In this document: positions 1-27,209 of the stretch, in pieces
How positions within the stretch are numbered: the stretch's first letter is position 1
How the letters are laid out: every line of letters starts with the position of its first letter
IMG/VR virus record: IMGVR_UViG_3300025133_000077
Location: 1-64,000 of that record
Direction: 5' to 3' (one strand)
DNA: 64,000 bases
DNA from: a virus
The notes under the pieces: generated by a model
Seen by the model: only the letters and a program-made list of their open reading frames with translations
The model's database searches: none
What the model was told of the DNA's origin: nothing
Position numbers and translations under genes: made by a program

Positions 1-1114
1 TCTCCACGTTGTCCCCGGCCTGGACCCGAACCGTTCCCGCGGCCTCCAGGAGCCACGACTTCTCCAGGGACCAGTTCACACTGCCGTCCTTGGTGATCTG
101 CATGGACACCTGCACAGCTGCTTCTTCGCCTTCCCCCTCGCCCTCCTTGTCCTGCGAGGTGCTGAACCCCAACAGAGAGTTGGCGGTGCCGGAGCGCGAC
201 ACCTTGAGCGAGGTGTCCTCCCCTGTCTGGGGGGTGGAGAGGCGGAGCTTGCCGTCGTCCAGGATCTTGTACTTCAGGCTCTCGCCCTGGAGAGCCGCGC
301 TCAGTACTCGCGAGAGCTCCTCTTCGTCCTCGGCATCTCCGTCGAGGGTGATGGTCTGCTCAGCCTTCTCTTCGCCTTCGATGGTCCGAGTCACGATGAG
401 GGTCTTGCCGTCCAGGAGCAGCGGGTAGGGGCCGAGGGTCACCTCCACCTGCGCCGGCTGAGCTCCGCCGTTGTAGACCGCCAAGCTGATGGCAGGGTCG
501 TCCGTCTCGTCCCCGTGATGACCCAGGACCATCTCCGCGACCGGGAAGGGGCTGTCCGCCTTCTCCTTCGCGTAGATCTTGCATCGAGTGGGCCGGTCCC
601 CGGTCGTCGTGGTCTCGTCTCGGTCGACCTCCCAGAGGAAGTCCCCTCCGAAGGTCCGCAGGTGGTAGGCCTCGCACATGTCCCGGATGATGTTGTTGAT
701 CGGGAGGTACAGCCGCTGGGCCAGGGGAGTGGCCTGGATCTGCACTACTCCGCCCCGCCGCACGAACACCGAGTTGCCGTCGCGGGTCCCCAGGTAGATG
801 TCCCCGGGGTTCATCGGCCGCCGGCCGGACTGGTAGCTGCCCTGCTCGTTCCAGGCTGCTCCGAAGCCGAGGATGAACGCCTTGTCGTCGAACTCGCTGG
901 ACTGGCAGACCCAACACATGCTGCCGGCCTCCGGCATCACCGAGATGCCTTCCCCCTCGGCGTGGTGCAGGTAGGGAGACATCAGCGGGATGCTCATCCA
1001 CCTCTTCGCGGAGTTCTGGGAGGCGACGTCGACGGAGTAGGTGCGGACGTTGACGTCGTAGACCACCCCGGACTCGATGACGGGCGTGCCGAACGAGGAG
1101 ACGGCTGCGGTCAC
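1..1114 (-). CDS. Baseplate spike/hub-like protein (3' end outside window)
   Basis: The reading frame is open from a GTG at 1114 to the window edge, about 371 codons, so the C-terminus is missing. The GTG overlaps the TGA of the upstream nuclease gene (GTGA). The N-terminal ~60 residues contain SVDVASQNSAKRWMSIPLM and ISVMPEAGSMCWVCQ, the pattern of an OB-fold gpV/gp5-type spike module (short strands, a Met/Pro-Gly turn, a hydrophobic closing strand). The next part is mixed beta sequence, followed by an acidic stretch. Tail-spike function is inferred from this pattern and from the many baseplate genes on the same strand; a generic virion protein is the alternative. It is the last visible gene of the RNAP-polyvalent-nuclease series. 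Confidence 0.55.
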   Translation of the reverse strand, partial: MTAAVSSFGTPVIESGVVYDVNVRTYSVDVASQNSAKRWMSIPLMSPYLHHAEGEGISVMPEAGSMCWVCQSSEFDDKAFILGFGAAWNEQGSYQSGRRPMNPGDIYLGTRDGNSVFVRRGGVVQIQATPLAQRLYLPINNIIRDMCEAYHLRTFGGDFLWEVDRDETTTTGDRPTRCKIYAKEKADSPFPVAEMVLGHHGDETDDPAISLAVYNGGAQPAQVEVTLGPYPLLLDGKTLIVTRTIEGEEKAEQTITLDGDAEDEEELSRVLSAALQGESLKYKILDDGKLRLSTPQTGEDTSLKVSRSGTANSLLGFSTSQDKEGEGEGEEAAVQVSMQITKDGSVNWSLEKSWLLEAAGTVRVQAGDNVE

Positions 1115-1467
1115 GGGCACTCCTCGGCGAGCCCCTGGGCTAGCAGCAGGCTCGCCAGGTCACCGGCGAGGGGCTCCCCGTGGCTGTCCATGGGGTACAC
1201 CAAGGCCAGCCAGCGGCCGTACTTGCCGCTCTTGTCCTTGAAGGTGCGGAGCAGCACGGGCTTGTTGAGCACGCGCTCCCTCACGAAGTCGCGGGCCTCT
1301 CGAGCCAGCGCCTTCGTCTCCTCGGTACCTCCTCGGAGCTCGGGCGTGTCGATGCCCTTGAGGCGGAGCTTCTGCTTCTTGAGCACGACGCCGAAGCCGA
1401 GGTCGATGTCCACGGTGAGGGTGTCGCCGTCGTAGACGGCCGTGACGAAGGCGCGGTACTCGTACAT
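1111..1467 (-). CDS. Staphylococcal nuclease-like (thermonuclease) protein
   Basis: 118-residue SNase-fold nuclease that would hydrolyse DNA or RNA with Ca2+. The active-site set of the family is present: DGDT near residue 13, RLKGIDTPE (equivalents of SNase Arg35, Asp40 and Glu43) and YGRWLALVY (equivalent of Arg87). I chose the ATG at 1467 because it forms a TGATG overlap with the stop of the upstream polyvalent gene; an in-frame ATG at 1488 would overlap by 20 bases. No signal peptide is visible, so it acts in the cytoplasm or travels with the particle. Its placement directly after the RNAP and polyvalent genes suggests host nucleic-acid degradation or processing, which is inference. Confidence 0.85.
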   Translation of the reverse strand: MYEYRAFVTAVYDGDTLTVDIDLGFGVVLKKQKLRLKGIDTPELRGGTEETKALAREARDFVRERVLNKPVLLRTFKDKSGKYGRWLALVYPMDSHGEPLAGDLASLLLAQGLAEECP

Positions 1468-4400
1468 CAGGTCCCCTTGCGGGCCCATCCCTGGCGCTTC
1501 TTGTAGCGGATCGGCTTCGGGCGGCCCTGCCGGCGGACGCTCTTCAGCAGCTTGTTGGCGTTGGTGTCCATCTGCTTCGGCAGGATGCCACGGCCCGTCT
1601 TGTCCTTGGCCAGCCCCTTCTTCGGGGCGACCCCGACGAGCCCTCGCTCCGGGATGTAGATCTTGCGGTAGTCCACCGTGACCTCTTCACCCGCCTCCAG
1701 CTCCCGCAGAGCCACCAGGTAGCGGGCCTTGCCCTTCTTCTTGATCTCGGCGTTGGGCTCGTAGCTGTGGTTCGTCTTCCGGCCCTCCGGCGACTGCATC
1801 CCGCGCTCGTCGAAGGCGACGGCGATGGGCTTGCCCTTCTTGACGGGCTCGTCGGTGAAGAAGCCCTTGCCGTGGATCTTGGACGGGTGGACGGCTGCCT
1901 TCTTCTGCAGGGGCAGGTGGTAGCGCAGGAACATCGAGCTCGGCTGGTACTTGTGCAGGAACTCCGACGGCACGTCGGAGGGCCTGAAGTCCTTCCCCAG
2001 CAACGGCTTCCCGTCCTTCGCAGCCCCGCGGTTGTGCTCCTTGCGGATCCTCCTCCGCTCAGCACGACTTCCGAAGCGGATGCCTGGCGTCTTCGCCCAG
2101 ACCGCCTTGCCCTGGTCGTCGGCCTCGGCCCCGACGTGGGTGGCTCCCAGGGACTTGCCGGCCTGCGCGATGCCCTTCATCCCCGCCGCTCCGATGCCAC
2201 GACGACGGAACTCCGGCTTCAGGTACATCGAATCCGCCTCGACGTGCCACTTGCCGCGCAGCAGCTTCTTCTTGAGCGTCAGGTCCGCGGTGCCGTACGA
2301 GAAAGCGTGATCGTCCTCTTGGAAAGGGTTCTTGTCGCCGTCGGTGCGCAGATGGATGGTGGCCTTGGGGCTCATGAACCCCAGCCCTCGGTACGTCTCC
2401 ACCTTGTGGAGCTTGGTGTGCTCGGGCAGGTGCTGCGGAATCGCCTTCTCCAGGTGCTCCCGCAGCACCTTCGGCCGATCCCGCCACCTGGTCTTCGCCA
2501 GCAGCTCGGAAGCCTCCTTCTTCCGCGGGGTCCGAGAAAGCACGAAGCGCTCCTGGGCCGTCAGCGCCTTCTTCCGCCCCTTCGCCACCTTGGCCATCAC
2601 CAAGGCCGTGGAGATGCGCTTCCCGCGCACCGAGCGGTTCCTGAGCGCCTTCTTGAAGTCCTCCACCGAGCAGGCGGAGAGCGAGCCGAAGAACTTGGGG
2701 TTGTCGTAGGCGCGCAGGTACTCCCGCTTCGCCTCCTTCGCCGAGGTGAAGCCGAGCATCACCTTGTCCTCGTCGAAGACCTTGAAGCCGGGCGCCTTCA
2801 TCTGGTGGACGATGTAGACGATGTCGCTCTTCTCGTTCGGGCCCACGTAGACGTCGACGGGGTCGCCGTCGGCGCCGAGGCTCCGCGGCACCTCGCCGTA
2901 GTGGTGCGGCATCACCGTCCGCCACTCCTTGCCCTTGGGGCCCTTGCCCTTGCGCACGGAGCCGCGCTTGTTCTCGATGTTGATCTTGATGCCCTGGAAG
3001 GTGCAGGTGCCCTGGTAGGGGAACTCCTTCCGGTTCCTCTTCGGGGGTGACGTGATCTTGACGGCCGCCGTCTTCGCCTGCCCCGGGGGCTTCGGAGGGG
3101 CGGGCGGCTTCGGCAGCTTGAAGATCTTGCCGCCGGACTCCACCTGCGCTGCTCCCTGCGGAGATCCGAACCGGCGAATCTGCTGCTGCAGGGCGGCCGG
3201 GGCGTGGACCATGCGCTGATCTTGCCCAGCGTCTGCGGCTGCGGTCCTGCCCCGGCGGAGGGCGGACCACGCCCTGTGCATGGGGCTGCCTCGGTACTGC
3301 TCCGTCGGGGCGTTCGAGATGCCTCCCTTCGCGCGGATGAAGCCGAATGCCTGCTTCTGCATCGCGGCCTCGCGAGCATGCCGCTCCCGCCGGGCGCGCA
3401 AGAGGCGGTGCACCCCGTACCCCGCCAGTGCCGTGGCACCGACTGCCGCTCCGCCGATAGCCACCTGTCTGCCTGTCGGCCTCCAGCCGCGCGCTGCGGA
3501 GGGGGGAGCCGAAGTAGGAGTCGGAGCTGGAGTGGGCCGGGAAGCCACCACCTTCTCGGCCACCTGCTTCGCCGCCGGGGCAGCGGCGGGAGCCGGGCGG
3601 GAAGCCACCACCTTCGCAGCTACCTGCTTCGCTGCGGGCGCGGACTTGGCCGCAGCCTCTTGCTTCACCTTCGCTGCAGCAGCGTCCCGCTGCTTCTGGA
3701 AGGCAACGGGACTGACCCCTGCTCGCCGGGCAGGACGCACCACGTCCCGGTGATACCTCTGGTTCTTCAGAGTCTGCTGGTGCCAGTCCAGTTCCTCCGT
3801 CGGCCTACCCGTCCTGACCTTCTCCTGGAGCAGCTCGTGCAGCTTCCTGTGCCGGTGCTCCACCGGGCCCGCTCGATTCTTGAGCAGGTGTCGACTGTGC
3901 CGAAGTTGCGACCTGTCGCCGCCTTCGCGGACCTTCTTCTCGAGGTCCAGGCTGTCCAGGTACTCCAGACGCTTCCACGTCTGCATGTCCTGGCGAGACG
4001 GTTCTCCCGGCCTCCACTTCGGCTCGGCAGGCCGCTTGAGGGTCGAGGGATCCCGCTCTCGCAGGTACCGCGGCTTCCCTGCCATCTTCTCGTGTCCGCC
4101 CAGCACCTGCCGCACCATCATCTGCACGACCGCCCAGAGCTCTGGGCGGTCCATGTCGTCAAGGTGCTGCTTGCCAACTGCCCGTTGACAATCCGCCATG
4201 AAGGCGGGGGAGTTGTCCCATTCCACCCCCAGGTGGTCAGCGATTGCGTGGACCTGCTCCTGGTCGAGCTCCGTGAAGCCGCGGCCCTTGCCCAGGTTCT
4301 GCAGCCACTCCGCGGTGTGCTGGGGCGTGCTGTACCTGCGCTCCTTCCACAGCTGTGGATGAAGGCTGTGGGCAACCCCGTGCCGCTCGAAGAGGGCGAT

Positions 4401-4769
4401 GGTCTGGTCGAGGCCGAACTTGTCGCAGGCCATCTCGAGGTGGATGGTCGGCCGGAAGTCCCGGAGGTACTCCTCGTCGGTGCGGGCGTCGACGACGTGA
4501 CCGAGGTCGTGGTAGCCGGACCAGGCCCGGTCCTCCAGGGAGACCGGGACTCCGCGCCGGCGCATGGCGAGGTAGATGACCTTGTTGACCTCGTCCTGCG
4601 CCGCGTAGCTGGGCATGTCCTCCAGGATGTGGAGGCGGTACCCGTACTTGGCGAGCTCCCCCTCGAGGTTCGAGAGCACGAGCTTCCACGCCCGGCCCTC
4701 CTCCCTCTCGGGAGGACGGTCTACCGCAGCTCCCGTCTTGACGAAGTCGACGAAGTCTTCAGTACGCAT
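1467..4769 (-). CDS. Multidomain polyvalent protein: zincin-like, TM, pyrophosphatase-like, GNAT and SET domains
   Basis: 1100 residues. Residues ~80-125 carry YHDLGHVVDA and HLEMACDKFGLD, a zincin-like arrangement in which HExxH reads HDxxH. A Pro/Ala/Lys-rich linker (~350-425) leads to a membrane-like Gly/Ala segment (~436-456) followed by an Arg-rich stretch. Residues ~583-709 match the InPase-like domain known from phage polyvalent proteins (HHYGEVPRSLGADGDPVDVYV, then a VYIVHQ strand and FDEDKVMLGF). Residues ~833-885 look like a GNAT acetyltransferase (YLKPEFRRRGIGAAG). Residues ~955-1040 are a SET domain: HGKGFFTDEPVKKG, TNHSYEPNAE and GEEVTVDY hold the AdoMet and lysine-channel residues. 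The gene starts 11 bases inside the RNAP gene's end. Polyvalent proteins are thought to enter the host with phage DNA; targets here are unknown. Confidence 0.8.
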   Translation of the reverse strand: MRTEDFVDFVKTGAAVDRPPEREEGRAWKLVLSNLEGELAKYGYRLHILEDMPSYAAQDEVNKVIYLAMRRRGVPVSLEDRAWSGYHDLGHVVDARTDEEYLRDFRPTIHLEMACDKFGLDQTIALFERHGVAHSLHPQLWKERRYSTPQHTAEWLQNLGKGRGFTELDQEQVHAIADHLGVEWDNSPAFMADCQRAVGKQHLDDMDRPELWAVVQMMVRQVLGGHEKMAGKPRYLRERDPSTLKRPAEPKWRPGEPSRQDMQTWKRLEYLDSLDLEKKVREGGDRSQLRHSRHLLKNRAGPVEHRHRKLHELLQEKVRTGRPTEELDWHQQTLKNQRYHRDVVRPARRAGVSPVAFQKQRDAAAAKVKQEAAAKSAPAAKQVAAKVVASRPAPAAAPAAKQVAEKVVASRPTPAPTPTSAPPSAARGWRPTGRQVAIGGAAVGATALAGYGVHRLLRARRERHAREAAMQKQAFGFIRAKGGISNAPTEQYRGSPMHRAWSALRRGRTAAADAGQDQRMVHAPAALQQQIRRFGSPQGAAQVESGGKIFKLPKPPAPPKPPGQAKTAAVKITSPPKRNRKEFPYQGTCTFQGIKINIENKRGSVRKGKGPKGKEWRTVMPHHYGEVPRSLGADGDPVDVYVGPNEKSDIVYIVHQMKAPGFKVFDEDKVMLGFTSAKEAKREYLRAYDNPKFFGSLSACSVEDFKKALRNRSVRGKRISTALVMAKVAKGRKKALTAQERFVLSRTPRKKEASELLAKTRWRDRPKVLREHLEKAIPQHLPEHTKLHKVETYRGLGFMSPKATIHLRTDGDKNPFQEDDHAFSYGTADLTLKKKLLRGKWHVEADSMYLKPEFRRRGIGAAGMKGIAQAGKSLGATHVGAEADDQGKAVWAKTPGIRFGSRAERRRIRKEHNRGAAKDGKPLLGKDFRPSDVPSEFLHKYQPSSMFLRYHLPLQKKAAVHPSKIHGKGFFTDEPVKKGKPIAVAFDERGMQSPEGRKTNHSYEPNAEIKKKGKARYLVALRELEAGEEVTVDYRKIYIPERGLVGVAPKKGLAKDKTGRGILPKQMDTNANKLLKSVRRQGRPKPIRYKKRQGWARKGT

Positions 4770-7700
4770 AGGGCTTCTTCTCCGTGCCCTTCCCGAACTG
4801 CGTGCCCAACACCAGCCCGGGGATCGGGTTCGTCCCGTGGATGTTGGTCTTCCAGCCCTGGGCTCCGCCCTCGGTGAGGGTCTTCTTCAGCTCACGGTAG
4901 TTGAGCCGGCCCATCCAGTCCTCGCTGGAGGCCATCGAGACCTCCTGGATGCCCTTGAGCACGGGGTCGTGGTCAGCTCCCTTGCCGCCCTTCTTCCCGA
5001 TCTCCCGGTTCACCTGCTCCAGCTTGGTGGTGGGGACCATGTCCCCTCGCAGGAAGCCGGTGTCCCCGGGCTGCTTGATCATCGAGAGGTTGGTGAGCGA
5101 GCGGACCACGGTCTCCATGTTCCGCTTCTTCACCTTGCCGCCGTAGGCGCCGTGCATCTCGTCGGTGAGGTAGCCCTTGACGCTCTCGATGCCGGCGACT
5201 TCCAGCAGGTGGTGCGGGTTCACGGGGCCGGAGGACAGAGCCTCGCCGAGAGCGACCTCGATCATCAGCGTGCCGCGGAGTGCGCGCATGACCTTGTCGG
5301 AGGGCTTGTTCCTGGCGGGGATGTAGTGGCTCTTCGGCGTGGGGAAGTACTTCCCGTACCGATCCTTGCCGCGGATGTGGACACGCCAGCCGCCGGCGGG
5401 GTCCACCTCGGCCTTCATGATCTGCCCCTTGTACGAGGAGATGGTGGCCTCGCCCGGCAGGGACTTCGTCAGGTGGAGCAGCTGCCCGAGCCGGGTGAAG
5501 GAGTCGGTGCGGCTGGCCTCGGCCTTGCTCACGACACCGCCGGTGTGGAAGGCGTTCATCGAGAGCTGCGTCGCCGGCTCGCCGATGGCCTGGGCCGCCC
5601 AGATGCCCACGTTCTCGCCGAGCGACGGGGAGCTCCCCGCCTCCGTGACGCCGTAGCACATCGCGCACACGCCCTCGGACTCCTCGCACTTCAGCGGGGA
5701 GCGGACGAGGACCTGGGCGACGCCCGAGTTCTTGATCTTGGTCAGCACCTCGGCGGTGAGCAAGGTCTTGCTGGGCACGTCGCCCTTCTTCAGCTTCACG
5801 GGGACCGCGGTGTAGCGGTCGTGGATCTCGGAGTCGGCCACCGACATCAGCACGCCGTTGGTGGTCCCGCAGTCGGGGGAGGTCACCAGCTGGTTGATGT
5901 TGGCGCTGACCAGGTCCTTGGTCAGCTCTCCGGGAGCCTGGGTGCCCTTCACCTTGCCCAGGGTGCCCATGCGAGCGCCGGACAGCGACGCCCAGTACTC
6001 CGCGGCGCTCAGCCCCTCGGAGTAGCTCTTCTTGATGGGGATCGGGACGGCGCTGCCGTTGGGGTCGGTGACCAGCACCGGGGCCAGAGTGAGCTGCTTG
6101 AACTGATCCCAGTTGCCTCGCGCGCCCGACTGCACCATCTCGTACATGCGGTTGCCTGTGCCCTTCATCTTCGCCTTGCCCTCGGCGTCGATCTTGTTCA
6201 GCGCCCCCATGTACGCGTCGACGACGGCCTTGTCGCGGCCCTTGCCCTTCTTCATCGCCTTCGCGGCCTCGCGGTCGGCCTCGGCGAAGTGCTTGTCGCG
6301 GATGTCCGGGCGGGACAGCACGTCCTTCAGGCTGAAGGAGTAGCCCGTGTCGTAGGTGTGCTTGTTGCCCAGCTGGTTCAGCTTGTTGACCGTGATCGAG
6401 AACCTCTGGGGGTGCGCCTTGGCCAACGGAGCCAGCAGGGAGGACACCGCGCCCTTGGTGAGCACCAGCGCCGGGTCCGCCAGGACCTTCTGCCTCTCCT
6501 TGGAGCCCGCGGGGAAGCAGTTGGCCAGCATCAGGCGGCCGACCGTGGTCTTCTGCTGGCCCGCCTCCTTGATCGTCTCGTCGATCTCCGGGGCCCAGTG
6601 CGAGCCTCCTCGCCACCACGCCGCGGTCTTGGTGATCACCGAGGAGCCCACCGTGATCTCCTCGGACGCGGTCACCTTCCCCTTCTTGTACGCCTTGATG
6701 GCGTCGTCGGCGGAGACGAAGGTCTTGCCCGTGCCCTTGCCCCACTTGCTCAGCTGGTAGAGGCCGAGCTGCGCCTCCTGGCTGGGCAGGTTCATCAGCC
6801 GGCCGGAGGAGGCGCTGAACAGGTTGTTCGAGGGCACCATCTTGCGGGCCTCGGCCACAGCCTCCTGGGTCAGTGGAACGTAGATCGCCGTGGTGTCGCC
6901 GTCGAAGTCCGCGTTGAACCCGCCGGTCACCAGGGGGTGGATGCGGATGGCCTTCCCCTTCACCAGCTTCGGGTGGAAGGCCATGATCCCGTGCTTGTGG
7001 AGCACGGGGTCACGCTTCATCAGCACCGGGCGGTCCCGCACGACGGACTCGAGCGCCTTCTTCGCCACCGGATCGTTCTGCTTCACCGCGAGCTGGGCAC
7101 GCAGCGGGGAGTAGCCGAAGACCTGGACCAGCTCCCGCACGACGAAGGGCTTGTACATCTCCATCGCCGCCTTCTGGGGCAGCCCCACCTCGTCCAGTCC
7201 CATCGACTGCTCGGGGATGATCGTGGAGCGCATGGACAGGTCCATGCGGCGGCCGATGATCTTGTTCTGGAAGTAGCCCGACTTCGGCTGCGTCCCCTTC
7301 ACGGTCTCGAGCACGCCGCGGTAGTGCCGGCCCTGGTACTTCTGGCCGTCCATGGTCAGCGCCTTGAGCCCGTCGTACAGCTCGCGGTACAGCGGCACCT
7401 TCTGGTTCTGGGGGAGGCCGGGGTCGAAGTCGCGGAGCTTCTGGTTCGTGAGGGACAGCCCCTTGTAGAGCTGGTTCACGTCGGCCGCCGTGGTGTTGCC
7501 GCTGTCCATCACGGACACGGGGCGGAACTTGGGCGGCATGATCGGGATGTGCTTCCGCATGTACGCGTCGGCGGGGTTGAGCTCGGCCGCCTTCAGCGCC
7601 TGGAGGTAGCGGACACGCCGGCGCAGCCGGCTGAGCTTGTACTTGCGCGCACCCTTCAGGGCGGTCAGCGTCTTCTTCAGCTCTGCGTCCAGGTCCAGGC

Positions 7701-10700
7701 CCCGGAGCGCCTTCTCGATGCCCTCGGCGCCCTTGCCTCCGCCGGGGACCTCCTTCTCGTGCCCCACGATCGCAGCGATGTCCCCCTTCTTGAGGTCCAG
7801 CAGCGACGTGATCGCGTTGTCGAACAGGGGGTTGGGCAGCGCTGTCTCCAGGGTCATGTGCCCCCAGCGCTGCTTGTCCGCGTGCTCCGGGTGCAGGGAG
7901 CCGAAGATCTTCTCGTCGAAGATGCCTCCCTTCTCCGGCTTCATGTCCTTGCCCCGGAACATCCGGCCCGGGTCAGCGACGTGCCCGTTGCTCAGCCCCA
8001 GGACCTGCTTGTCCGTGAGGGGCTTGAGCTGCATCTCGTCGCCCTTCTTCTCCACGTCGAGCCCCATGGTCTTCAGGAACCCCTCGAACTTGTGGTAGGT
8101 GAAGGGGATCTTGGGAGCGGGAAGGGCCTGGCCGGAGTGCAGGGCCGTCCACATGTCGGCGTTGTAGTCCGACTTGTGGGTGTACATCTCCCGGAGGTTG
8201 TGCCGCGCGCCGTGGGCGAGCATGGAGTACAGGCCGAGCGCACTCAGGGACTGGGCGCTGGTGCCACCTCCCTCCTTGGGGGAGCGGTCCAGGTTGTACG
8301 GCGCCGACGTGCCACCGGAGCGGGAGGTCATCTTCTTGGAGACCTTGTGCTTCATCTTGAAGATGTACTGGTTGCCGATCAGCACATCCCCCATCTTCTT
8401 GCCGGTGTCGGGGTCGAAGAGCTCCTCCGTGTCGGACAACCCGTGCTTCTTCAGCTCGGACTGGACCACTCGGCCGTAGTCGGCCTTGCCCTCCTCCTGG
8501 GGGAAGTTGTCGACGTGGTACGCCTTGCCGGACTTCTCCGCGATCTTCCCCGCCAGGGTCTCGAGCACCTGGCCGACGTTGATGCGGGACGGGACGCCGT
8601 GGGGGTTCAGGGCGATGTGGATCTGGTTGCCGTCCTTGGTGACCGGCATCTCCTTGTCGTGCACGATGCGGGAGATGATCCCCTTGTTGCCGTGGCGGCC
8701 GACCAGCTTGTCGCCGACCTGCGCCGGCTCCTCGGTCTTGATGTGGACCTCGATCTGCTTCGCCGTCCGGATGACGCGGACGACCTTGCCCTTGTAGCCC
8801 TTGTCCCAGAGCACCGATCGGTTCGAGTAGTCCTGCACCTTCGAGCGCTTCAGGGCCTGGTAGGCCGCGGCCTCCGAGCCGATCTCCCGCTTCTGCAGCT
8901 TGGCGATGAGGACGTCCCCCTCCTCGACGTCGGAACCGTCCTTGATCACCCCGCGGGGGTCGAGCTTGGCCATCTGCGCCGTCGTCACGGTGCCGGGCGA
9001 GATGTGGGCGAGGAACTTGGCCTTGTCGAACACCGAGTTGCGGTCGATGGTCGTCGACATCCGGTACATGTGCAGGCTGGTGAGCATCGAGGACGCGGAC
9101 TGGGAGATCACCACCCCGTCCTCGAAGTTGTAGCCCTTGAAGGGGACGTAGCCCACGCGGAGGTTCTTGCCGAGGGCGAAGGTCCCGTCCTTCGTGAAGT
9201 TGGTGTCGGCCAGGAGCTGCCCACGCTTCACGCGGTCGCCCACCTTCACCTTCAGGTGGGCGTCGAGGTAGGCCTCGTCCTGGTTGAGGGGGAAGTCCTT
9301 GTAGACCTGGACCTCGTGCTCCTTGCCCGTGCTGTCGCGGATGAACACCGCGTCCTTCACGATCTTCGTCACCACCCCGTTGACCGGCGCCTGGTGGGAG
9401 TTGAAGGAGCCCATCATCTGCTCGAAGGTGTGTCCCTCGCCGGCGTCGGTGGCGCTCTGCACCAGCGGGGCCTCCCGGTGCTTCAACGAGACCACCTGCT
9501 CCTGCATCCGGGACGCCGTCATCGTGCGGTTGCCCTGGTTGTTGTGCAGGAAGGGGATCAGGTTCGTGGGCAGGGAGTACATCCCCTTCGAGGTGAGCAT
9601 CACGTGCGTCACCTCGTTCCAAGGGCGCATCATCACGTCGTTGCCCTTGCCGGCGACGGCGACGTTCTTCGCGTTCTTGGGCAGAGGCATCTCGCCCGCC
9701 CACTTCACCTGGTCGGAGAAGGCCACGACGTACCCCTGGAAGTCGTGCGGAGCCACCTTGTCGATCTTCTTGGTCTTCCGGTTGTACAGGGAGACCCGGA
9801 GCTCTCGGCCCTCCTTCTCCACGCCCAAGGGCAGCTGCAGGGTGATGCCCGTCTTCGCGCCCTCCGGAGTGGTGATGGGGTCCAGGTAGTTCAGGTGCGT
9901 GTTGTTGATCCGCAGTGCCTCCTTCGGCACACGCTGCAGGTCGGACACGGCGCCGGGACCCATGATCGTGGTTCGCATCTGCCCCGACACGAACTCCAGC
10001 GGGTTCGTCTGGTTGGGCATCTGGGCCAGCGACGTGGAGAAGAATGAGCCCATCGGCTTGCCGAAGACCGCGGGGTTGACGATCTGTCTGACCGTGCCCT
10101 TCTTCCCGTCCAGGCCCTGCCGCAGTCGGCGGCCGATCTCAGCGCGGGAGCGGTGCAGTCGGTCGGAGAGGTGGTCCTCGATGGACAGCACGTCCTTGAA
10201 GGCCAGGGACTCGCGGTCGTCCGGGGCAGCCTCACCGCGGGCGAGGCTCAACAGCTTCTTGGAGGAGGTCAGCATGGCCTCCCCGTTCACCGCGGCGAAG
10301 GGCTTGCCGAGCGTGAGCTTGGTGCTGTCCTTCCGCAGCTCCGCCGCGGACAGCGTCTTCCTGACCTCGGCCTGCGCCTCAGCGAGCGTCTCCGCCGACC
10401 CTCCGGTGGTCCTCTTGAGGATCTTGTTCAGGGACTGCAGCTGCTTCTTCTCGTCCCCGTACTTCTTGACCGAGGCGTCGTAGATCTCCCCGCCCCACGC
10501 TTTCTTGATCTTGTCGTCGGGCTCCCCCATCGCCCGGAGCACCGGGTACAGGCCGATGTCCTCCATCGAGCCGAACTTCAAGGTGAAGACGCGCTTCTCG
10601 GGGTGGAAGTAGGACCAGAAGCGGTCCGCCTTCGCGCCCTCCCAGTTGTTGATGTTCCACTGGGTCACCAGGCGCCCCGCCTCGTCCTCCCGGTGGTAGA

Positions 10701-11058
10701 CGCCCGACTTCAGGCGGAACTGGTTGTCGACCTGCCGCTCCTTGCCGTCGACGATGTAGGAGTAGCGTCGGGTGATCTTGGGGATCTTGGCCACGGTGAT
10801 CGTGGACTTGTCGATCACCTCCCCCGTGGTCTTGTCGATCAGGGAGAGACGGGCCTTGACGGGCACTGCCCAGGAGCGCCCGTGCAGCTTCGCCTCCCGC
10901 TGCGAGCGGATGTCGTCGAGGCTCAGGTCGTCGGCGACCCAACACTTCGACATCTCGAGGCGGCGGTTCTGTCCCTCGAAGGGGAAGTGATCGGCGACAG
11001 CCTCCGCGACACGGCTCTTCAGCGTCTCGAAGGCCTCTTCTGGGTCGAGCTGGGCCAT
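4759..11058 (-). CDS. Fused beta-beta' DNA-directed RNA polymerase, single chain
   Basis: 2099-residue DNA-directed RNA polymerase joining the bacterial beta and beta' cores. Beta signatures: NFEDGVVISQSASS (~640), GDKLVGRHGNKG (~781), LNPHGVPSR (~819), a KMTSRSGGTSAPYNL region (~910). Beta' signatures: IIGRRMDLSMRSTII (~1270), a VLMKRDPVLHKHGIMAFHP block (~1345), the catalytic Mg site NADFDGD (~1381-1387), VQSGARGN (~1642), bridge-helix GARMGTLGKVKGT (~1700), a Cys cluster CEESEGVCAMCYG (~1790) and QAIGEPATQLSMNAFHTGG (~1825). No stop separates the halves. The start at 11058 has GAGG 4 nt upstream; an upstream in-frame ATG at 11184 would cover the promoter. No alpha, omega or sigma gene is visible. 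It should transcribe phage genes; which class and in which compartment is unknown. Confidence 0.95.
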   Translation of the reverse strand: MAQLDPEEAFETLKSRVAEAVADHFPFEGQNRRLEMSKCWVADDLSLDDIRSQREAKLHGRSWAVPVKARLSLIDKTTGEVIDKSTITVAKIPKITRRYSYIVDGKERQVDNQFRLKSGVYHREDEAGRLVTQWNINNWEGAKADRFWSYFHPEKRVFTLKFGSMEDIGLYPVLRAMGEPDDKIKKAWGGEIYDASVKKYGDEKKQLQSLNKILKRTTGGSAETLAEAQAEVRKTLSAAELRKDSTKLTLGKPFAAVNGEAMLTSSKKLLSLARGEAAPDDRESLAFKDVLSIEDHLSDRLHRSRAEIGRRLRQGLDGKKGTVRQIVNPAVFGKPMGSFFSTSLAQMPNQTNPLEFVSGQMRTTIMGPGAVSDLQRVPKEALRINNTHLNYLDPITTPEGAKTGITLQLPLGVEKEGRELRVSLYNRKTKKIDKVAPHDFQGYVVAFSDQVKWAGEMPLPKNAKNVAVAGKGNDVMMRPWNEVTHVMLTSKGMYSLPTNLIPFLHNNQGNRTMTASRMQEQVVSLKHREAPLVQSATDAGEGHTFEQMMGSFNSHQAPVNGVVTKIVKDAVFIRDSTGKEHEVQVYKDFPLNQDEAYLDAHLKVKVGDRVKRGQLLADTNFTKDGTFALGKNLRVGYVPFKGYNFEDGVVISQSASSMLTSLHMYRMSTTIDRNSVFDKAKFLAHISPGTVTTAQMAKLDPRGVIKDGSDVEEGDVLIAKLQKREIGSEAAAYQALKRSKVQDYSNRSVLWDKGYKGKVVRVIRTAKQIEVHIKTEEPAQVGDKLVGRHGNKGIISRIVHDKEMPVTKDGNQIHIALNPHGVPSRINVGQVLETLAGKIAEKSGKAYHVDNFPQEEGKADYGRVVQSELKKHGLSDTEELFDPDTGKKMGDVLIGNQYIFKMKHKVSKKMTSRSGGTSAPYNLDRSPKEGGGTSAQSLSALGLYSMLAHGARHNLREMYTHKSDYNADMWTALHSGQALPAPKIPFTYHKFEGFLKTMGLDVEKKGDEMQLKPLTDKQVLGLSNGHVADPGRMFRGKDMKPEKGGIFDEKIFGSLHPEHADKQRWGHMTLETALPNPLFDNAITSLLDLKKGDIAAIVGHEKEVPGGGKGAEGIEKALRGLDLDAELKKTLTALKGARKYKLSRLRRRVRYLQALKAAELNPADAYMRKHIPIMPPKFRPVSVMDSGNTTAADVNQLYKGLSLTNQKLRDFDPGLPQNQKVPLYRELYDGLKALTMDGQKYQGRHYRGVLETVKGTQPKSGYFQNKIIGRRMDLSMRSTIIPEQSMGLDEVGLPQKAAMEMYKPFVVRELVQVFGYSPLRAQLAVKQNDPVAKKALESVVRDRPVLMKRDPVLHKHGIMAFHPKLVKGKAIRIHPLVTGGFNADFDGDTTAIYVPLTQEAVAEARKMVPSNNLFSASSGRLMNLPSQEAQLGLYQLSKWGKGTGKTFVSADDAIKAYKKGKVTASEEITVGSSVITKTAAWWRGGSHWAPEIDETIKEAGQQKTTVGRLMLANCFPAGSKERQKVLADPALVLTKGAVSSLLAPLAKAHPQRFSITVNKLNQLGNKHTYDTGYSFSLKDVLSRPDIRDKHFAEADREAAKAMKKGKGRDKAVVDAYMGALNKIDAEGKAKMKGTGNRMYEMVQSGARGNWDQFKQLTLAPVLVTDPNGSAVPIPIKKSYSEGLSAAEYWASLSGARMGTLGKVKGTQAPGELTKDLVSANINQLVTSPDCGTTNGVLMSVADSEIHDRYTAVPVKLKKGDVPSKTLLTAEVLTKIKNSGVAQVLVRSPLKCEESEGVCAMCYGVTEAGSSPSLGENVGIWAAQAIGEPATQLSMNAFHTGGVVSKAEASRTDSFTRLGQLLHLTKSLPGEATISSYKGQIMKAEVDPAGGWRVHIRGKDRYGKYFPTPKSHYIPARNKPSDKVMRALRGTLMIEVALGEALSSGPVNPHHLLEVAGIESVKGYLTDEMHGAYGGKVKKRNMETVVRSLTNLSMIKQPGDTGFLRGDMVPTTKLEQVNREIGKKGGKGADHDPVLKGIQEVSMASSEDWMGRLNYRELKKTLTEGGAQGWKTNIHGTNPIPGLVLGTQFGKGTEKKPYAY

Positions 11059-12141: not shown

Positions 12142-14148
12142 TCACACCAGCGCCCTGCCGGGGTCTCGCCGGGGCGGCTTCTGCGACGGGAGCGGAGACT
12201 GCTGCGCGTCGAGCGGGTCCCGGGTCTCCTTGGAGCCCTGCATGATCTGCAAGACCAGCGAGTAGAAGTGCGGCTGCGTCGACTTCATCTTCTGCATCGC
12301 CGCGTAGGCGTCCGGCGGCTTCGTCTTGAGCAGCTTCCGCAGCTCGTTCGCCGTCCGCTTGGCCACGTAGAAGACGTCCTGACCCGTGCCCGGGTCAGCC
12401 GTCAGCTGAGAGGACGCCTCCTGCGGGACGCCTGTGACCGGAGAGGACTGCCCGTTCTCCGGGTACAGCTTGGCCCCTGCCGGGCCCTCGACGGGGCCGC
12501 TGCCGCCCTCCTGGCCACCCTCCTGGCCAGGGCCGAGCTGCATGGCTCCGCCCCCGCCCACGAGGTCGGACTGGGCCGCCTGCATGTAGAGCTGCATGAC
12601 CTGCTGAGCCTCGCCCTGGCCGACGGCCGCGGAGACCTGGGCCCGTCGCTGGTCCTCGGCCTGCTTCCTCGACTCGGAGCTGAGCAGCAGCCGCTCGGTC
12701 TCGTAGTCCTCGTTGAGTTCGCGCAGGAAGGTGTGGTCGGAGATCTTGTTGGCCTGGTTGGCCTGGAAGTAGATCATCGTGCGCTGCAGGTCGTCCGCCA
12801 TCTTGAAGCGGCGGAACTTCTTGCCCACGCGGGGCCAGCCCAACCACGCGCCGATGGAGTCGAACACCCAGTCCGTGAGGCCCTGGATGTCGGCGCGGTA
12901 GTTGATGAACTCGTTCTCTAGGTTCCGCATGGAGACCTGCGTGCCGGAGTAGCCGAGGCCGCCGAAGATAAACTCCTGCGGGACGTGGAGGCCGGCGACG
13001 ATGTTCTCTGCCCAGACGCGGTACTCCTGGTGGAGCACCATCGCTCGGCCCTGGCCGCCGACCATCTGGTGTCCCACGGGGAGGGGCAGGATCGGGATGT
13101 AGTTGGGGTCCCGCCGCCACCGCTCGATCTCCTCCTCCATCTGGCTCTTCCAGCCGGTGAGGGGCATCGTGGTGTACGGGTCGCTGGTCCCGGAGCCGGG
13201 CTGCGGGAAGATCATGCGCAGCGGCACGATGTGCTCGCGGGCGATGGCTTCCTGGCCCTTCTTGAGGATCTGCAGGTAGTAGGAGTCCTTGAGCACCGGC
13301 AGGATGCGGGACAGACCCCAGCCCTTGTCGTTCCCGTTGCCCGAGATGGACGGGCGCCGCATGTGGAAGAGCTGGCCCGGGGCGAACCGGAGGCCGGTCT
13401 TCTTGCGGGCGGCCTCGACGAAGACGTTGGGGATCTCCTCCTGAAGGTGGTTCCTTCCGATCATCAGCCGCGCCCGCGTGCGGGGGCTCATCTCGTAGTA
13501 GTACCTGCAGTGCCCGGTCTCCTCGTTCACATCGATGGCGATGCGCTCGGGGTCCCACCGGACGAGCCCGATCTTGTACGGGCTCCGCTGCCAGACATCG
13601 AGGGGCTTGGCGTTGCCCACCTTCCTGCACTTGGGGCAGGTGAGGCGGTAGTTCAGCTCCCGCCACTTGTAGTGGGGCCGCAGCTTCTTCGCCGGCGCCT
13701 GGTACTTGCAGTGGTTGCACTGCAGGAACTTCACGAAGGGGTAGTTGATCGAGGTGAAGGAGTTGCCGTAGCACTGGTAGTCCAGGCCGGTCTCCACCTG
13801 GAAGCTGCGGAACTTCAGGATCTGGTCCTTGAGGTACTTGTACTTCCGCGCCACCGCCTCGTGCTTGCTCTCGAACACCAGGTCGGTGATCGGGTACGAG
13901 GCCATCTTGTAGATGACCGCGTTCACCAGCGGGTTGGTGAAGAAGTAGTAGCGGCACCAGCGGAACAGCTTCTTCTGCGACGAGGGCAGGTAGGTGTGCG
14001 CTCCGTCGAAGAAGGGGCTGGGGTACGGCACGCCGGCCCGGCCCGAGGCCCCGAAGAAGCCCGAGCGCAGGTTGGCGAAGCCGCTGCCTCCGGCGGTGCC
14101 GCCGCTCACCCCGTACGTGGGCAGCCCGAAGTCGAATCCCTCAGCCAT
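12142..14148 (-). CDS. Portal protein with zinc-ribbon insertion
   Basis: 668 residues, the usual length range for large-phage portals. Portal-like features are the aromatic N-terminal region (RWCRYYFFTNPLVNAVIYKMA), the GLHVPQEFIFGGLGYSGTQVS block, and the long helical ENEFINYRADIQGLTDWVFDSIG stem region. The C-terminal ~130 residues are low-complexity Gln/Gly/Ala. Unusual is a CNHC...CPKC pair near residues 142-172, which looks like a zinc ribbon inserted in the wing. The portal would form the dodecameric DNA channel at one capsid vertex and dock the terminase. It is the last gene of a three-gene minus-strand operon. No capsid or terminase gene is in the window. Confidence 0.75.
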   Translation of the reverse strand: MAEGFDFGLPTYGVSGGTAGGSGFANLRSGFFGASGRAGVPYPSPFFDGAHTYLPSSQKKLFRWCRYYFFTNPLVNAVIYKMASYPITDLVFESKHEAVARKYKYLKDQILKFRSFQVETGLDYQCYGNSFTSINYPFVKFLQCNHCKYQAPAKKLRPHYKWRELNYRLTCPKCRKVGNAKPLDVWQRSPYKIGLVRWDPERIAIDVNEETGHCRYYYEMSPRTRARLMIGRNHLQEEIPNVFVEAARKKTGLRFAPGQLFHMRRPSISGNGNDKGWGLSRILPVLKDSYYLQILKKGQEAIAREHIVPLRMIFPQPGSGTSDPYTTMPLTGWKSQMEEEIERWRRDPNYIPILPLPVGHQMVGGQGRAMVLHQEYRVWAENIVAGLHVPQEFIFGGLGYSGTQVSMRNLENEFINYRADIQGLTDWVFDSIGAWLGWPRVGKKFRRFKMADDLQRTMIYFQANQANKISDHTFLRELNEDYETERLLLSSESRKQAEDQRRAQVSAAVGQGEAQQVMQLYMQAAQSDLVGGGGAMQLGPGQEGGQEGGSGPVEGPAGAKLYPENGQSSPVTGVPQEASSQLTADPGTGQDVFYVAKRTANELRKLLKTKPPDAYAAMQKMKSTQPHFYSLVLQIMQGSKETRDPLDAQQSPLPSQKPPRRDPGRALV

Positions 14149-15018
14149 CTACGCCGCCTTGCTCTGGAGGAGCCACGAGAACTCTCGGGCCTGCACAGCT
14201 TCCTGCTGGCGCCGGTGCACCATGTAGTTGTGGGCCACGAGCAGCTTGCCGCAGACGACATCCTCGCGCACATCGTCGCTCAGGTCTGCCCCTTCCCCAC
14301 CGTGCACCTGCCTCCACCGGGCGGCGACCGGGCGGGGGTCGTTCTTGTAGAAGGTCGAGACGTTGCGGCCTACCTCGTCCGGGATGCCCCGCGCCGGCCT
14401 GCCGTTCACCGTCTTCTCGTCCATGTCCGGGTTGAACCGCCCCACGCAGACGTCGCACCGCCCATCCTCGAGGTCGTCGTCGTCCTCGTTGCCGCAGTCC
14501 CCACAGCGGTAGGTGGGCTCGGCCACCACGCGCTGCGCGACGGCGAGGGGGCCCGGCAGGAACCAGACGCCGCGCTCCAGAGCCGAGGCCGCCATGAACC
14601 GGACCACCTCCTCCTGGTACGGCTCCTTGCGGATGTCCGAGACCATGTCGACGGCCGCCATCATCTGGGCAACTGTCGGTTGCTGAAGTGTCATGAAGTC
14701 GGGGGTGTTGTTGTTCAGCGCCTGCACCAGAGGGGCAAACACCGACCACGACGACCAGAAGCCGTTGGCCAGCAGCAGGTTGCGGATCGCCTGGATCTTG
14801 TTCTTGTTCAGCGCGCTGACCGTCACCCTGTGGGGACGGGAGTAGTGCTTCTGGAAGAGCTCCGAGAAGTCCTGCTCGATCTCGTACCAGAGCACATCGG
14901 AGTCCCACTCCAGCCAGTCCGACTTGAACACCGCGAAGAGGAGCCCGGCCAACACCGCCGGGTGCGCGTCGTGGTAGCCGAAGAAGAGGGCCGGCGACTC
15001 AGGCGCTGATGGTTCCAC
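14149..15018 (-). CDS. Zinc-ribbon protein next to portal
   Basis: 289 residues from GTG at 15018, chosen because AGGAG lies 8 nt upstream and the codons further upstream look non-coding; it overlaps the end of the preceding gene by 20 bases. A ribbon-type motif CGDCGN followed by an acidic DDDDLEDG run and CDVC sits near residue 155. The C-terminal part is helical and charged. It stops one base before the portal ATG. The position suggests a head or head-tail role, but no family is recognised. Confidence 0.6.
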   Translation of the reverse strand: MEPSAPESPALFFGYHDAHPAVLAGLLFAVFKSDWLEWDSDVLWYEIEQDFSELFQKHYSRPHRVTVSALNKNKIQAIRNLLLANGFWSSWSVFAPLVQALNNNTPDFMTLQQPTVAQMMAAVDMVSDIRKEPYQEEVVRFMAASALERGVWFLPGPLAVAQRVVAEPTYRCGDCGNEDDDDLEDGRCDVCVGRFNPDMDEKTVNGRPARGIPDEVGRNVSTFYKNDPRPVAARWRQVHGGEGADLSDDVREDVVCGKLLVAHNYMVHRRQQEAVQAREFSWLLQSKAA

Positions 15019-16300
15019 GGGCGTGGCTCCTGCTGGCCGCCAGCCGCGCCACGACCACCTGCTTGGGGTAGGGCAGGGACTTGAAGACGGTGACGGGCTT
15101 CGCCATGAACTGGTCCGCCGCGTCATCGCCGAGCGCATCCCGGACACGGCCGAGGTCGTTGCGGGAGAGCCTCAGCAGGTCCGCCCCCGTCACCTTGTCG
15201 ATCCCCTTCATCCAGTGGTAGCCGGCGTCCTCGGACGCTGTCTTCTCGGAGAGGGCTGCGCGGTACGGGTCGGGCAGGGAGCGGTCCCACTCCTGGCTGA
15301 GCCCGTAGTGCTCGTCGAACTGCGTCAGCGCCTTGCCGAAGGCGTCGGGACCCTGGTGCGTGGCGACCGTGGCCAGCTTCATCAGGATGGCGCCGCCCCG
15401 CTCGTCGACCCGGCCCGCCCTGGCGTTGAGGTGGAGGACGAAGCTCTCGTTGAGCTGCTCGCCCCCGTACTGCGCCACCTTCTCGGTGACCTCGACCTCG
15501 AAGTGGTCGGCGGCGAGCTTGACGTTGCGGCAGTACTCCCGCCGGTCAGCGGGGTGGAAGCGGTCCCCGTACTCGTCGAAGTAGGCCATCGCCTGCTTGA
15601 CCTGCTCTTCGGTGTCAAGCGGGTAGCGGTCGTCGAGGGCCGCCGTCTTCCTCCGGGAGTGTCGATCCAGTGCGGCGTACGCTCCGTAGCCTGCCCCGAT
15701 GCCAAGAAGTGCGCCGCCCGCCCCCTTCGCTGCGCCACCGGCGGTGCGCTTCAGGGTCTCGGTCTTCGTCGCCCCCTGTTGCCGCGCCTTGCGGAAGCCG
15801 GCAGCCGCGCCGACCGTGCCTGCCCCAAGAGGGATGCCGGCCACGATGCCGGCTTCGATGAGGGTGAACGCCTGCTTCTCCCAGGCCCGGATGTCGACGA
15901 CGGCCTCGGCGATGCCGGCCACCTTCATCAGCATGCCGTCGCGGGAGCCGATCTCGGGCACAGCCGAGGCGACCTTGGCGACGAGCCCGGGGACGGTGTA
16001 GCCGCCCTCGTCCATCGTCTCCATCAGCTTGATGCCGGCGACCACGGCGGCCGTCTTCGGCATCTGGTCCCAGGTCCGCTCGAGGTACTGGGCACTGAGC
16101 CACGCCACCTCGGGCGAGGTGCAGGCGAACTTGCGGAGCTTGCCCTCGCTGCTGAGCATGACGACTCCGAAGTCGGAGTCGGGGTAGCGCGACAGCTCAT
16201 CGCGCTCGGGCAGTGACGCGGTCGCCACCTTCTCGGGGAGTGAGACCGACGCTGCCTTGAGCAGCCCCGGTCCCAGATCGTGCGGGTCGACAGCGAGCAT
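14999..16300 (-). CDS. Ala/Gly-rich membrane-type protein upstream of portal
   Basis: 433 residues from ATG 16300, which has GGAGG 4 nt upstream. Two hydrophobic Gly/Ala segments (~170-195, FTLIEAGIVAGIPLGAGTVG, and ~220-240, GGALLGIGAGYGAYAAL) resemble the membrane-like segment of the polyvalent protein. The chain contains many short K-x-A-[ASF]-type tetrapeptides (PKTAAV, AKVASA, EKQAFT, RKTAAL, EKTASE), also found in the polyvalent protein. It could be an internal or ejected virion protein, a maturation factor or an anchor; no family is recognised. First gene of the portal operon. Confidence 0.55.
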   Translation of the reverse strand: MLAVDPHDLGPGLLKAASVSLPEKVATASLPERDELSRYPDSDFGVVMLSSEGKLRKFACTSPEVAWLSAQYLERTWDQMPKTAAVVAGIKLMETMDEGGYTVPGLVAKVASAVPEIGSRDGMLMKVAGIAEAVVDIRAWEKQAFTLIEAGIVAGIPLGAGTVGAAAGFRKARQQGATKTETLKRTAGGAAKGAGGALLGIGAGYGAYAALDRHSRRKTAALDDRYPLDTEEQVKQAMAYFDEYGDRFHPADRREYCRNVKLAADHFEVEVTEKVAQYGGEQLNESFVLHLNARAGRVDERGGAILMKLATVATHQGPDAFGKALTQFDEHYGLSQEWDRSLPDPYRAALSEKTASEDAGYHWMKGIDKVTGADLLRLSRNDLGRVRDALGDDAADQFMAKPVTVFKSLPYPKQVVVARLAASRSHARGTISA

Positions 16301-26603: not shown

Positions 26604-26627
26604 AAAATAACTCATTTCGGATTGGGG

Positions 26628-26633
26628 TATGCT
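26628..26633 (+). promoter_or_regulatory. Leaderless -10 box (TATGCT) of the HNH gene
   Basis: TATGCT ends 7 nt before the ATG at 26640 (spacer GGCGCC), the geometry of a leaderless transcript that starts on the A of ATG. It lies in a short AT-rich gap (26600-26630) with no good -35 box and no ribosome site. The same TAYGMT-N6-RTG layout is found at 48257 and 63243. Confidence 0.5.
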
Positions 26634-26639
26634 GGCGCC

Positions 26640-27209
26640 ATGAAGAGATTCTCGGACCGTTTGAAGGAGAAGGGCGTCGTAATGCGCCCCGCCAGCGTCC
26701 CCAACCCCATCGTGCGCTCCGAGGAAGGCGTGTGGGTGATCGTAGAGGCCCGGGACAGGTCAGAGCGCTGCCGCTTCCTCGTAGACGAGGACGTCTATGC
26801 CGCGCTGGTGGCTCCCCACAGGTGGAACGTGGGGGGCGTAGAGCGCAACCGCGTCTACCACTCGGGGCGCACGCCCTCCGGCAACTCCACGGTGCTGCTG
26901 GCAAGGTTCATCTTCGACCCGCCCGCAGACCGCGAGGTCGACCACATCAACGGTGATCCCCTGGACAATCGCTACGAGAACCTGCGGGTCGCGACCCGCA
27001 AGCAGAACGAGGAGAACCGCCATGTGTCGCGGGGCAAGAGCAAGTACCGCGGCGTGCACCCCTGCAAGCAGACGGGACGATGGAGGGCCCAGGTGACCCA
27101 CAACTACACGGCGCACAAGAGCCCTCGCTTCGACACCGAGGAAGAGGCTCGTGCATGGGCAGTCGCAAAGCGGGACGAGCTGTTCACCCACCACCGGCAG
27201 TCCTCATGA
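26640..27209 (+). CDS. HNH homing endonuclease with AP2 domain
   Basis: 189 residues. The HNH core is VDHINGDPLDNRYENLRVAT (~101-120), with DH, the catalytic His and the Asn. An AP2-type DNA-binding domain follows (KYRGVHPCKQTGRWRAQV, ~135-152). This HNH-AP2 order is typical of free-standing phage homing endonucleases. It sits directly after the DNA polymerase, a favoured target for such mobile genes, and has its own leaderless-type promoter; both suggest a later insertion. It would cut unoccupied alleles of related phages. Confidence 0.9.
   Translation: MKRFSDRLKEKGVVMRPASVPNPIVRSEEGVWVIVEARDRSERCRFLVDEDVYAALVAPHRWNVGGVERNRVYHSGRTPSGNSTVLLARFIFDPPADREVDHINGDPLDNRYENLRVATRKQNEENRHVSRGKSKYRGVHPCKQTGRWRAQVTHNYTAHKSPRFDTEEEARAWAVAKRDELFTHHRQSS

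What the first reader, a model, noticed from the sequence alone, without database searches (positions are those of the whole stretch)
1467..4769. Polyvalent protein joining zincin-like, InPase-like, GNAT and SET domains
The InPase-like domain is known from phage polyvalent proteins; the addition of a SET lysine methyltransferase (NHSYEPNAE, GEEVTVDY) and a GNAT acetyltransferase gives two protein-modifying activities in one chain with a membrane-like segment. This combination could modify host or phage proteins, possibly the RNAP, early in infection.
Basis: partly seen in the sequence, partly recalled or inferred. Interest (0 to 1): 0.85.

Follow-up and report, generated by a model that had tools for sequence, protein, structure and literature searches.

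The report
Phage head protein carrying several enzymes
A tailed phage encodes one long protein that strings together a metallopeptidase-like domain, a pyrophosphatase-like domain, an acetyltransferase and a lysine methyltransferase; it lies among the head genes beside a virion RNA polymerase, and short sequence marks between its domains suggest, without direct proof, that it is packed into the head and cut there into separate enzymes before injection.

Summary
ORF 1467-4769 (-), 1100 aa, carries InPase (2e-39), SET (2e-6) and GNAT (9e-5) domains, all above Pfam cut-offs. The N-terminal domain is modelled as zincin-like (IrrE, selecase, Wss1), but its motif is HDLGH, not HExxH. The gene overlaps the end of a fused beta-beta' RNAP gene and lies inside the head module. 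The cultivated relative Arash carries the related RNAP in its virions (published MS).
In relatives this slot is empty, holds the N-domain alone or with a glycosyltransferase-like domain, or a 1695-aa version with InPase swapped for a papain-like amidase.
New here: head proteins of this phage group (MCP N-termini, scaffold-like proteins, prohead protease) are enriched in [ML]-[EVT]-K-[TQE]-A-[SA] (40 sites against 2.8 expected in one relative; tail and replication proteins near background). The motif also marks the polyvalent protein's domain junctions and the ends of swapped modules. I infer a head-packaged polyprotein cut by the prohead protease into separately injected enzymes. There is no direct cleavage or packaging evidence, and a motif built from distant relatives alone does not recover the junction sites. 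RNAP as target of SET or GNAT is unsupported.

The parts
1467..4769 (-). Polyvalent protein, 1100 aa; starts inside the end of the RNAP gene
   Evidence: ORF list and translation; hexamer gene call
4725..4769 (-). N-terminal leader-like peptide, residues 1-15 (MRTEDFVDFVKTGAA); resembles but does not match the F..ELxKxA leaders of neighbouring head proteins
   Evidence: Sequence; conserved in the L001 homologue; leader statistics for other proteins
4095..4697 (-). Zincin-like domain, residues 25-225; HDLGH at 87-91, candidate third ligand Glu112
   Evidence: AlphaFold model and Foldseek; invariant residues in 5 homologues
4080..4088 (-). K-x-A site, residues 228-230 (HEKMAG), score 0.5
3399..3467 (-). 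Weakly hydrophobic glycine-zipper-like stretch, residues 435-457
   Evidence: Hydropathy 1.29
3348..3356 (-). K-x-A site, residues 472-474 (MQKQAF)
   Evidence: Score 2.5
3066..3074 (-). K-x-A site, residues 566-568 (QAKTAAV), before InPase
   Evidence: Score 2.6
2643..3014 (-). InPase domain, residues 586-709
   Evidence: PF18823 2.3e-39
2511..2519 (-). K-x-A site, residues 751-753 (KKEASE), between InPase and GNAT
   Evidence: Score 1.8
2055..2492 (-). GNAT domain, about residues 760-905 (Pfam match 835-885)
   Evidence: PF00583 8.5e-5; Foldseek GNAT matches
1896..1904 (-). K-x-A site, residues 956-958 (LQKKAAV), between GNAT and SET
   Evidence: Score 1.3
1659..1895 (-). Short SET domain, about residues 959-1037
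   Evidence: PF00856 1.7e-6; motif alignment with phage SET proteins
4759..11058 (-). Fused beta-beta' RNA polymerase, 2099 aa
   Evidence: Pfam Rpb1/Rpb2 domains; relatives in Arash and D69
6622..6630 (-). K-T-A site at RNAP residues 1477-1479, in an insertion where Arash and D69 have a gene break
1111..1488 (-). Staphylococcal-nuclease-like gene in the same slot
   Evidence: PF00565 6e-9, phrog_452 2e-29
2..1120 (-). Baseplate/spike-like gene downstream of the slot (assignment by appearance and synteny only)
   Evidence: only a weak unknown PHROG match
12142..14148 (-). Portal protein
   Evidence: Profile match to Arash gp204 portal, E=1.8e-69
14999..16300 (-). Head-module protein rich in K-x-A sites
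   Evidence: 14 against 3.75 expected

Best explanation
The gene makes an internal head (ejection) polyprotein. It is expressed with the RNA polymerase and other head genes and enters the prohead during assembly. The phage's prohead protease cuts it at [ML]-x-K-x-A-[SA] motifs between the domains, releasing a zincin-fold domain, an InPase, a GNAT and a SET methyltransferase, which are injected with the DNA and act on host proteins and nucleotides early in infection. Shown: the domains, the head-gene neighbourhood, enrichment of the motif in head proteins, and motif copies at the junctions. Inferred: packaging, cutting, injection and targets.
For: Slot lies between portal and terminase/protease/MCP in relative G005. 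Arash virions contain the related RNAP and the enzyme encoded just downstream of it, helicase gp217 (PMC10585845). The motif is enriched in head but not tail or replication modules, conserved at MCP N-termini and in leaders (50 against 7.6), and dense in scaffold-like proteins. Junction sites in the polyvalent protein: 4 against 0.8, P about 0.007; homologue 5 against 0.6, P about 0.001. Six module boundaries lie 0-5 aa from sites, P about 5e-6. The fused RNAP has a site where relatives have a gene break. Related SET domains sit beside a DNA-ejection gene in a P22-like phage.
Against: No cleavage or packaging has been observed for this phage. A matrix from Arash and D69 alone does not single out the window protein's sites (1 against 0.56, P 0.44; homologue P 0.07). 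Site thresholds and module boundaries were chosen after seeing the data. The G005 homologue has no site scoring >=1. The prohead protease gene itself is not on the window's contig, which is a fragment.
Confidence: 0.5

Rival explanations
1. An ordinary polyvalent protein, packaged and injected as one intact chain; the K-x-A linkers are remnants of the leader peptides of once separate head proteins that became fused.
For: Many head proteins have K-x-A leaders, and the N-domain is a separate gene in G007. N4 virion RNAP is packaged uncut (PMC5512222).
Against: Leaders that are cut in head proteins would be expected to be cut in a fusion too; the RNAP site falls where relatives have separate chains.
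Confidence: 0.22
2. K-x-A is a binding or packaging motif for the scaffold or capsid, not a protease site; the protein is packaged by it.
For: The motif recurs many times in scaffold-like proteins, as a docking motif also might.
Against: Its place just before the conserved block of the MCP, its presence near the N-terminus of the protease itself, and the resemblance to assemblin Ala-Ser sites (my knowledge).
Confidence: 0.13
3. The protein is not packaged; it works inside the infected cell, late, modifying phage or host proteins.
For: No proteomics for this phage; GNAT and SET enzymes often act in the cytosol.
Against: Head-module position, variable cargo-like slot, junction motif shared with head proteins.
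Confidence: 0.1
4. The zincin-like domain cuts the protein itself, as proposed for other polyvalent proteins.
For: Zincin-like fold; published proposal.
Against: The general-base Glu is Asp in all five homologues; the junction motif is shared with head proteins that lack this domain.
Confidence: 0.05

Closest known systems
Polyvalent proteins of phages and conjugative elements (Iyer et al. 2017, PMC5512222)
   Same: Several effector domains in one phage-encoded chain; zincin-like, InPase and GNAT domains are all on their list, InPase with GNAT included
   Different: The main text does not mention a SET domain; HDLGH instead of HExxH; K-x-A-bounded modules shared with the phage's head proteins are not described there
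Prohead-protease-processed head and ejection proteins of T4, phiKZ and SPN3US (PMC5694885, PMC10052503)
   Same: Internal head proteins with N-terminal leaders and repeated protease motifs; virion RNAP packaged in the head
   Different: Those proteases cut after Glu; here K-x-A-[SA]; nearly all cuts reported for SPN3US remove terminal propeptides, not separate enzyme domains
Salmonella phage Arash and Vibrio phages D69/D148/D181
   Same: Homologous RNAP, MCP, portal and protease, same K-x-A motif in MCP and scaffold-like proteins
   Different: RNAP split into two genes; a helicase (Arash) and no polyvalent protein downstream of RNAP
Short SET proteins of podoviruses (Rhodoferax P26218 gp30, Pseudoalteromonas PH1, ct1fd225)
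   Same: Same short SET with G-x-G, NHS and DY motifs; the P26218 gene is followed by a DNA-ejection gene
   Different: Different N-terminal part; no InPase or GNAT

Membership tests
Polyvalent proteins (Iyer et al. 2017) | Two or more effector domains in one polypeptide encoded by a phage or mobile element | tested here: met
   InPase, GNAT, SET and zincin-like domain in one ORF of a tailed phage
Polyvalent proteins (Iyer et al. 2017) | Delivered into the host with the genome | not testable with these tools
   Only inferred from neighbourhood and from Arash virion proteomics
Zincin-like metallopeptidases | HExxH motif | tested here: not met
   HDLGH in all five homologues
Zincin-like metallopeptidases | Zincin fold with a zinc-ligand Glu in the following helix | tested here: inconclusive
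   Foldseek top matches are zincins but E >= 0.01 and TM-scores low; Glu112 invariant
InPase family of polyvalent proteins (PF18823) | Profile match and acidic motif | tested here: met
   2.3e-39; GADGDPVDVYVGPN in the translation
GNAT acetyltransferases | Acetyl-CoA motif R/Q-x-x-G-x-G/A and GNAT fold | tested here: met
   FRRRGIGA in the translation; PF00583 above cut-off; Foldseek
SET lysine methyltransferases | G-x-G, NHS..PN and catalytic-Tyr (DY) motifs | tested here: met
   PF00856 above cut-off; motif alignment
SET lysine methyltransferases | Protein lysine methylation activity | not testable with these tools
   Needs assay; SET part of the model is of low confidence
Prohead protease substrates / capsid-targeted internal proteins | Protease recognition motif shared with MCP and scaffold | tested here: inconclusive
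   Met with the close-relative matrix, not with the Arash/D69-only matrix
Prohead protease substrates / capsid-targeted internal proteins | T4/phiKZ-type cleavage after Glu ([LI]xE, SxE, AxE) | not tested
   A different candidate motif, K-x-A, was found instead; Glu motifs were not scored
Prohead protease substrates / capsid-targeted internal proteins | Observed cleavage in virions | not testable with these tools
   No mass spectra at hand

The most novel reading that the evidence does not exclude
A phage lineage packs enzyme polyproteins into its head and uses its capsid-maturation protease, with a K-x-A specificity unlike the Glu-specific proteases of T4 and phiKZ-type phages, as the releasing enzyme. 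Protease sites delimit exchangeable effector cassettes (zincin, InPase or amidase, GNAT, SET), and the fused virion RNAP is cut by the same protease, so one phage delivers a lysine methyltransferase and an acetyltransferase as separate injected proteins.
Probability: 0.42. Interest if true: 0.82.

Novelty: new variant of a known kind. Interest (0 to 1): 0.6.

Why it matters
Polyvalent proteins have been proposed to be cut into parts, but by which protease and where is open. Here the motif gives exact predicted cut sites, testable in a cultivated relative by re-reading virion mass spectra. It also predicts which proteins of this phage group are head cargo (those with the leader motif), and it places SET-domain methyltransferases among candidate injected phage effectors, which bears on the unanswered question of what protein methylation does in phage infection.

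Tried and rejected
Close-pattern search for SET relatives in IMG/VR gave only the known homologue. The zincin-like domain was not found in bacterial genomes with the two peptide patterns used. PHROGs and Pfam say little on most head proteins. The AlphaFold model of GNAT+SET is useful only for GNAT. Plain K-x-A counts are not significant in the window protein (11 against 7.9); only the full motif is, and a matrix from Arash and D69 alone is not. I considered that the K-x-A site in Arash RNAP marks the beta/beta' junction; it lies in an Arash/D69-specific insertion, so I dropped it. I considered Arash gp218 as homologue of the K-x-A-rich 664-759 aa protein; profile comparison gave 5.9% probability, so it is not claimed. 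No mention of RNAP fusion or processing was found in the paper on RNAP-encoding Caudovirales (PMC7481178) beyond a remark on crAssphage.

Full report
OBSERVATION. The ORF at 1467-4769 (-) is 1100 aa. Pfam finds InPase at residues 586-709 (2.3e-39), SET at 984-1034 (1.7e-6) and GNAT at 835-885 (8.5e-5), each above the curated cut-off. The GNAT region was modelled and matches GNAT structures. The SET region was too poorly modelled to judge by fold, but its three motifs align with SET proteins of other phages. The N-terminal domain was modelled at mean pLDDT 74 and its best solved-structure matches are zincins: IrrE/PprI, selecase, Wss1 (best E 0.01, low TM-scores). Its motif is HDLGH, with Asp in the place of the catalytic Glu in all five homologues, so peptidase activity is doubtful. 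The membrane-like segment is weak.

NEIGHBOURHOOD. The window is part of a 74.7-kb virus record. The gene starts inside the end of a fused beta-beta' RNAP gene. In the longer relative G005 the gene order runs portal, RNAP, slot, spike-like gene, a K-x-A-rich protein, TerL, scaffold-like and protease genes, MCP (portal assignment from a profile match to Arash gp204, E=1.8e-69). So the slot is inside the head module. Cultivated relatives, Salmonella phage Arash and Vibrio phages D69, D148 and D181, share RNAP, MCP and protease. Published Arash virion proteomics found RNAP gp206 as the most detected protein, with gp216 and the helicase gp217, encoded just downstream of RNAP, also abundant (PMC10585845). 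The authors note that abundance in infected cells could also leave such enzymes in the preparation.

THE SLOT IS A CASSETTE SITE. In G001 the homologue is 1695 aa; it keeps the N-domain, GNAT and SET, has a papain-like amidase in place of InPase (Peptidase_C92 5e-5, below cut-off) and three extra modules of about 140-200 aa. In G004, G005 and G006 the N-domain is followed by a GT-B-like region (Glyco_tran_28_C 0.004, below cut-off). In G007 the N-domain is a separate 226-aa gene. In G003 and its near-copy G002 the slot is empty. In G011, G012 and G018 it holds small leader-bearing proteins.

THE K-x-A MOTIF. Comparing homologues I saw K-x-A at each junction. Plain K-x-A is not significant in the window protein. 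I therefore took 24 proteins of the group in which K-x-A is enriched, leaving out polyvalent proteins, and derived the context: [M/L/F/I]-[E/V/T]-K-[T/Q/E]-A-[S/A], with Gly and Pro avoided after K. Sites scoring >=2 number 11, 21 and 40 in the head modules of G000, G001 and G005 against 1.0, 1.3 and 2.8 expected; tail and replication modules are near background. Some of these head proteins trained the matrix, so the contrast with the other modules, not the absolute excess, is the fair reading. K-[ILV]-A occurs in all 24 MCP relatives listed, just before the conserved GG..[IV]RD block, and K-E-A at the corresponding place in Arash and D69. Leaders with the motif occur in 50 of 342 proteins against 7.6 expected. 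Arash gp223 and D69 271 carry it every few tens of residues, as a scaffold that is chopped up would. Herpesvirus assemblins cut at Ala-Ser (my knowledge); T4, phiKZ and SPN3US proteases cut after Glu. I infer that K-x-A-[SA] is this lineage's prohead protease motif. No cleavage has been observed, and which bond would be cut is not settled.

THE MOTIF IN THE POLYVALENT PROTEIN. Sites scoring >=1 are at residues 472, 566, 751 and 956, with 228 at 0.5; they lie in linkers, none inside a recognised domain. Against local shuffles 4 are seen and 0.8 expected, P about 0.007; the G001 homologue has 5 sites >=2 against 0.6, P about 0.001. Six boundaries of inserted or swapped modules lie 0-5 residues from sites, P about 5e-6 for random positions; I chose these boundaries from the alignment, so this figure is optimistic. 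The fused RNAP of G000, G001 and G004/G005 has a KTA site in an insertion at the position where Arash and D69 end one RNAP gene and start the next; G011, G012 and G017, fused but without the insertion, lack it. Caveats: the G005 homologue has no site scoring >=1, and a matrix trained only on Arash and D69 does not single out the window protein's sites (P 0.44) or the RNAP site of G000. This step therefore leans on close relatives and on position.

SET DOMAIN CONTEXT. Related short SET domains occur at the C-terminus of proteins of podoviruses; in Rhodoferax phage P26218 the gene is directly followed by one annotated 'DNA ejection'. This independently suggests that some phages keep SET domains near injected proteins.

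MECHANISM AND LIMITS. Most likely: packaged polyprotein, cut in the head, parts injected. InPase would clear pyrophosphate or act on nucleotides (as proposed in PMC5512222); GNAT and SET would modify proteins. Targets are unknown. RNAP as target is not supported; RNAP is constant in relatives while the slot content varies.

NOVELTY. It is a polyvalent protein, so a known kind. New are its SET domain (not mentioned in the main text of the defining paper), the K-x-A-bounded modularity and the predicted processing. Hence: new variant of a known kind.

Noticed in passing
window 4759-11058 (-): Fused beta-beta' RNAP (2099 aa) with a K-T-A site in an insertion exactly where Arash and D69 have a gene break.
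   Followed up: yes
L059 (Arash gp220-gp226), L060 (D69 268-275), L023 387-8885 (G005): Motif [ML]-[EVT]-K-x-A-[SA] dense in scaffold-like proteins, protease and MCP N-termini of a whole phage group.
   Followed up: partly
L076 934-1809 (Rhodoferax phage P26218), L072, L073: Short SET domains at the C-terminus of podovirus proteins; in P26218 next to a gene annotated DNA ejection.
   Followed up: partly
L001 13646-15085: The SET domain of the G001 homologue is preceded by a 143-aa insertion that repeats the start of the domain (IHGKGFFTD), and its NHS motif reads NHSPRPTAE.
   Followed up: no
window 1111-1488 (-): Staphylococcal-nuclease-like gene between the polyvalent gene and the spike-like gene, without a K-x-A leader.
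   Followed up: no
L006 9986-18475 (+): RNAP of G003 is 2829 aa, some 700 aa longer than in the other relatives.
   Followed up: no
window 26622-27209 (+): HNH endonuclease with AP2 domain directly after the DNA polymerase A gene; looks like a homing endonuclease.
   Followed up: no
L065 17024-17950 (-): Protein with collagen-like triple-helix repeats beside the spike-like gene in relative G018.
   Followed up: no
L061 19139-19528, L007 16217-16924: Small slot proteins with a leader peptide followed by glycine-rich stretches; could be membrane-active ejection proteins.
   Followed up: no
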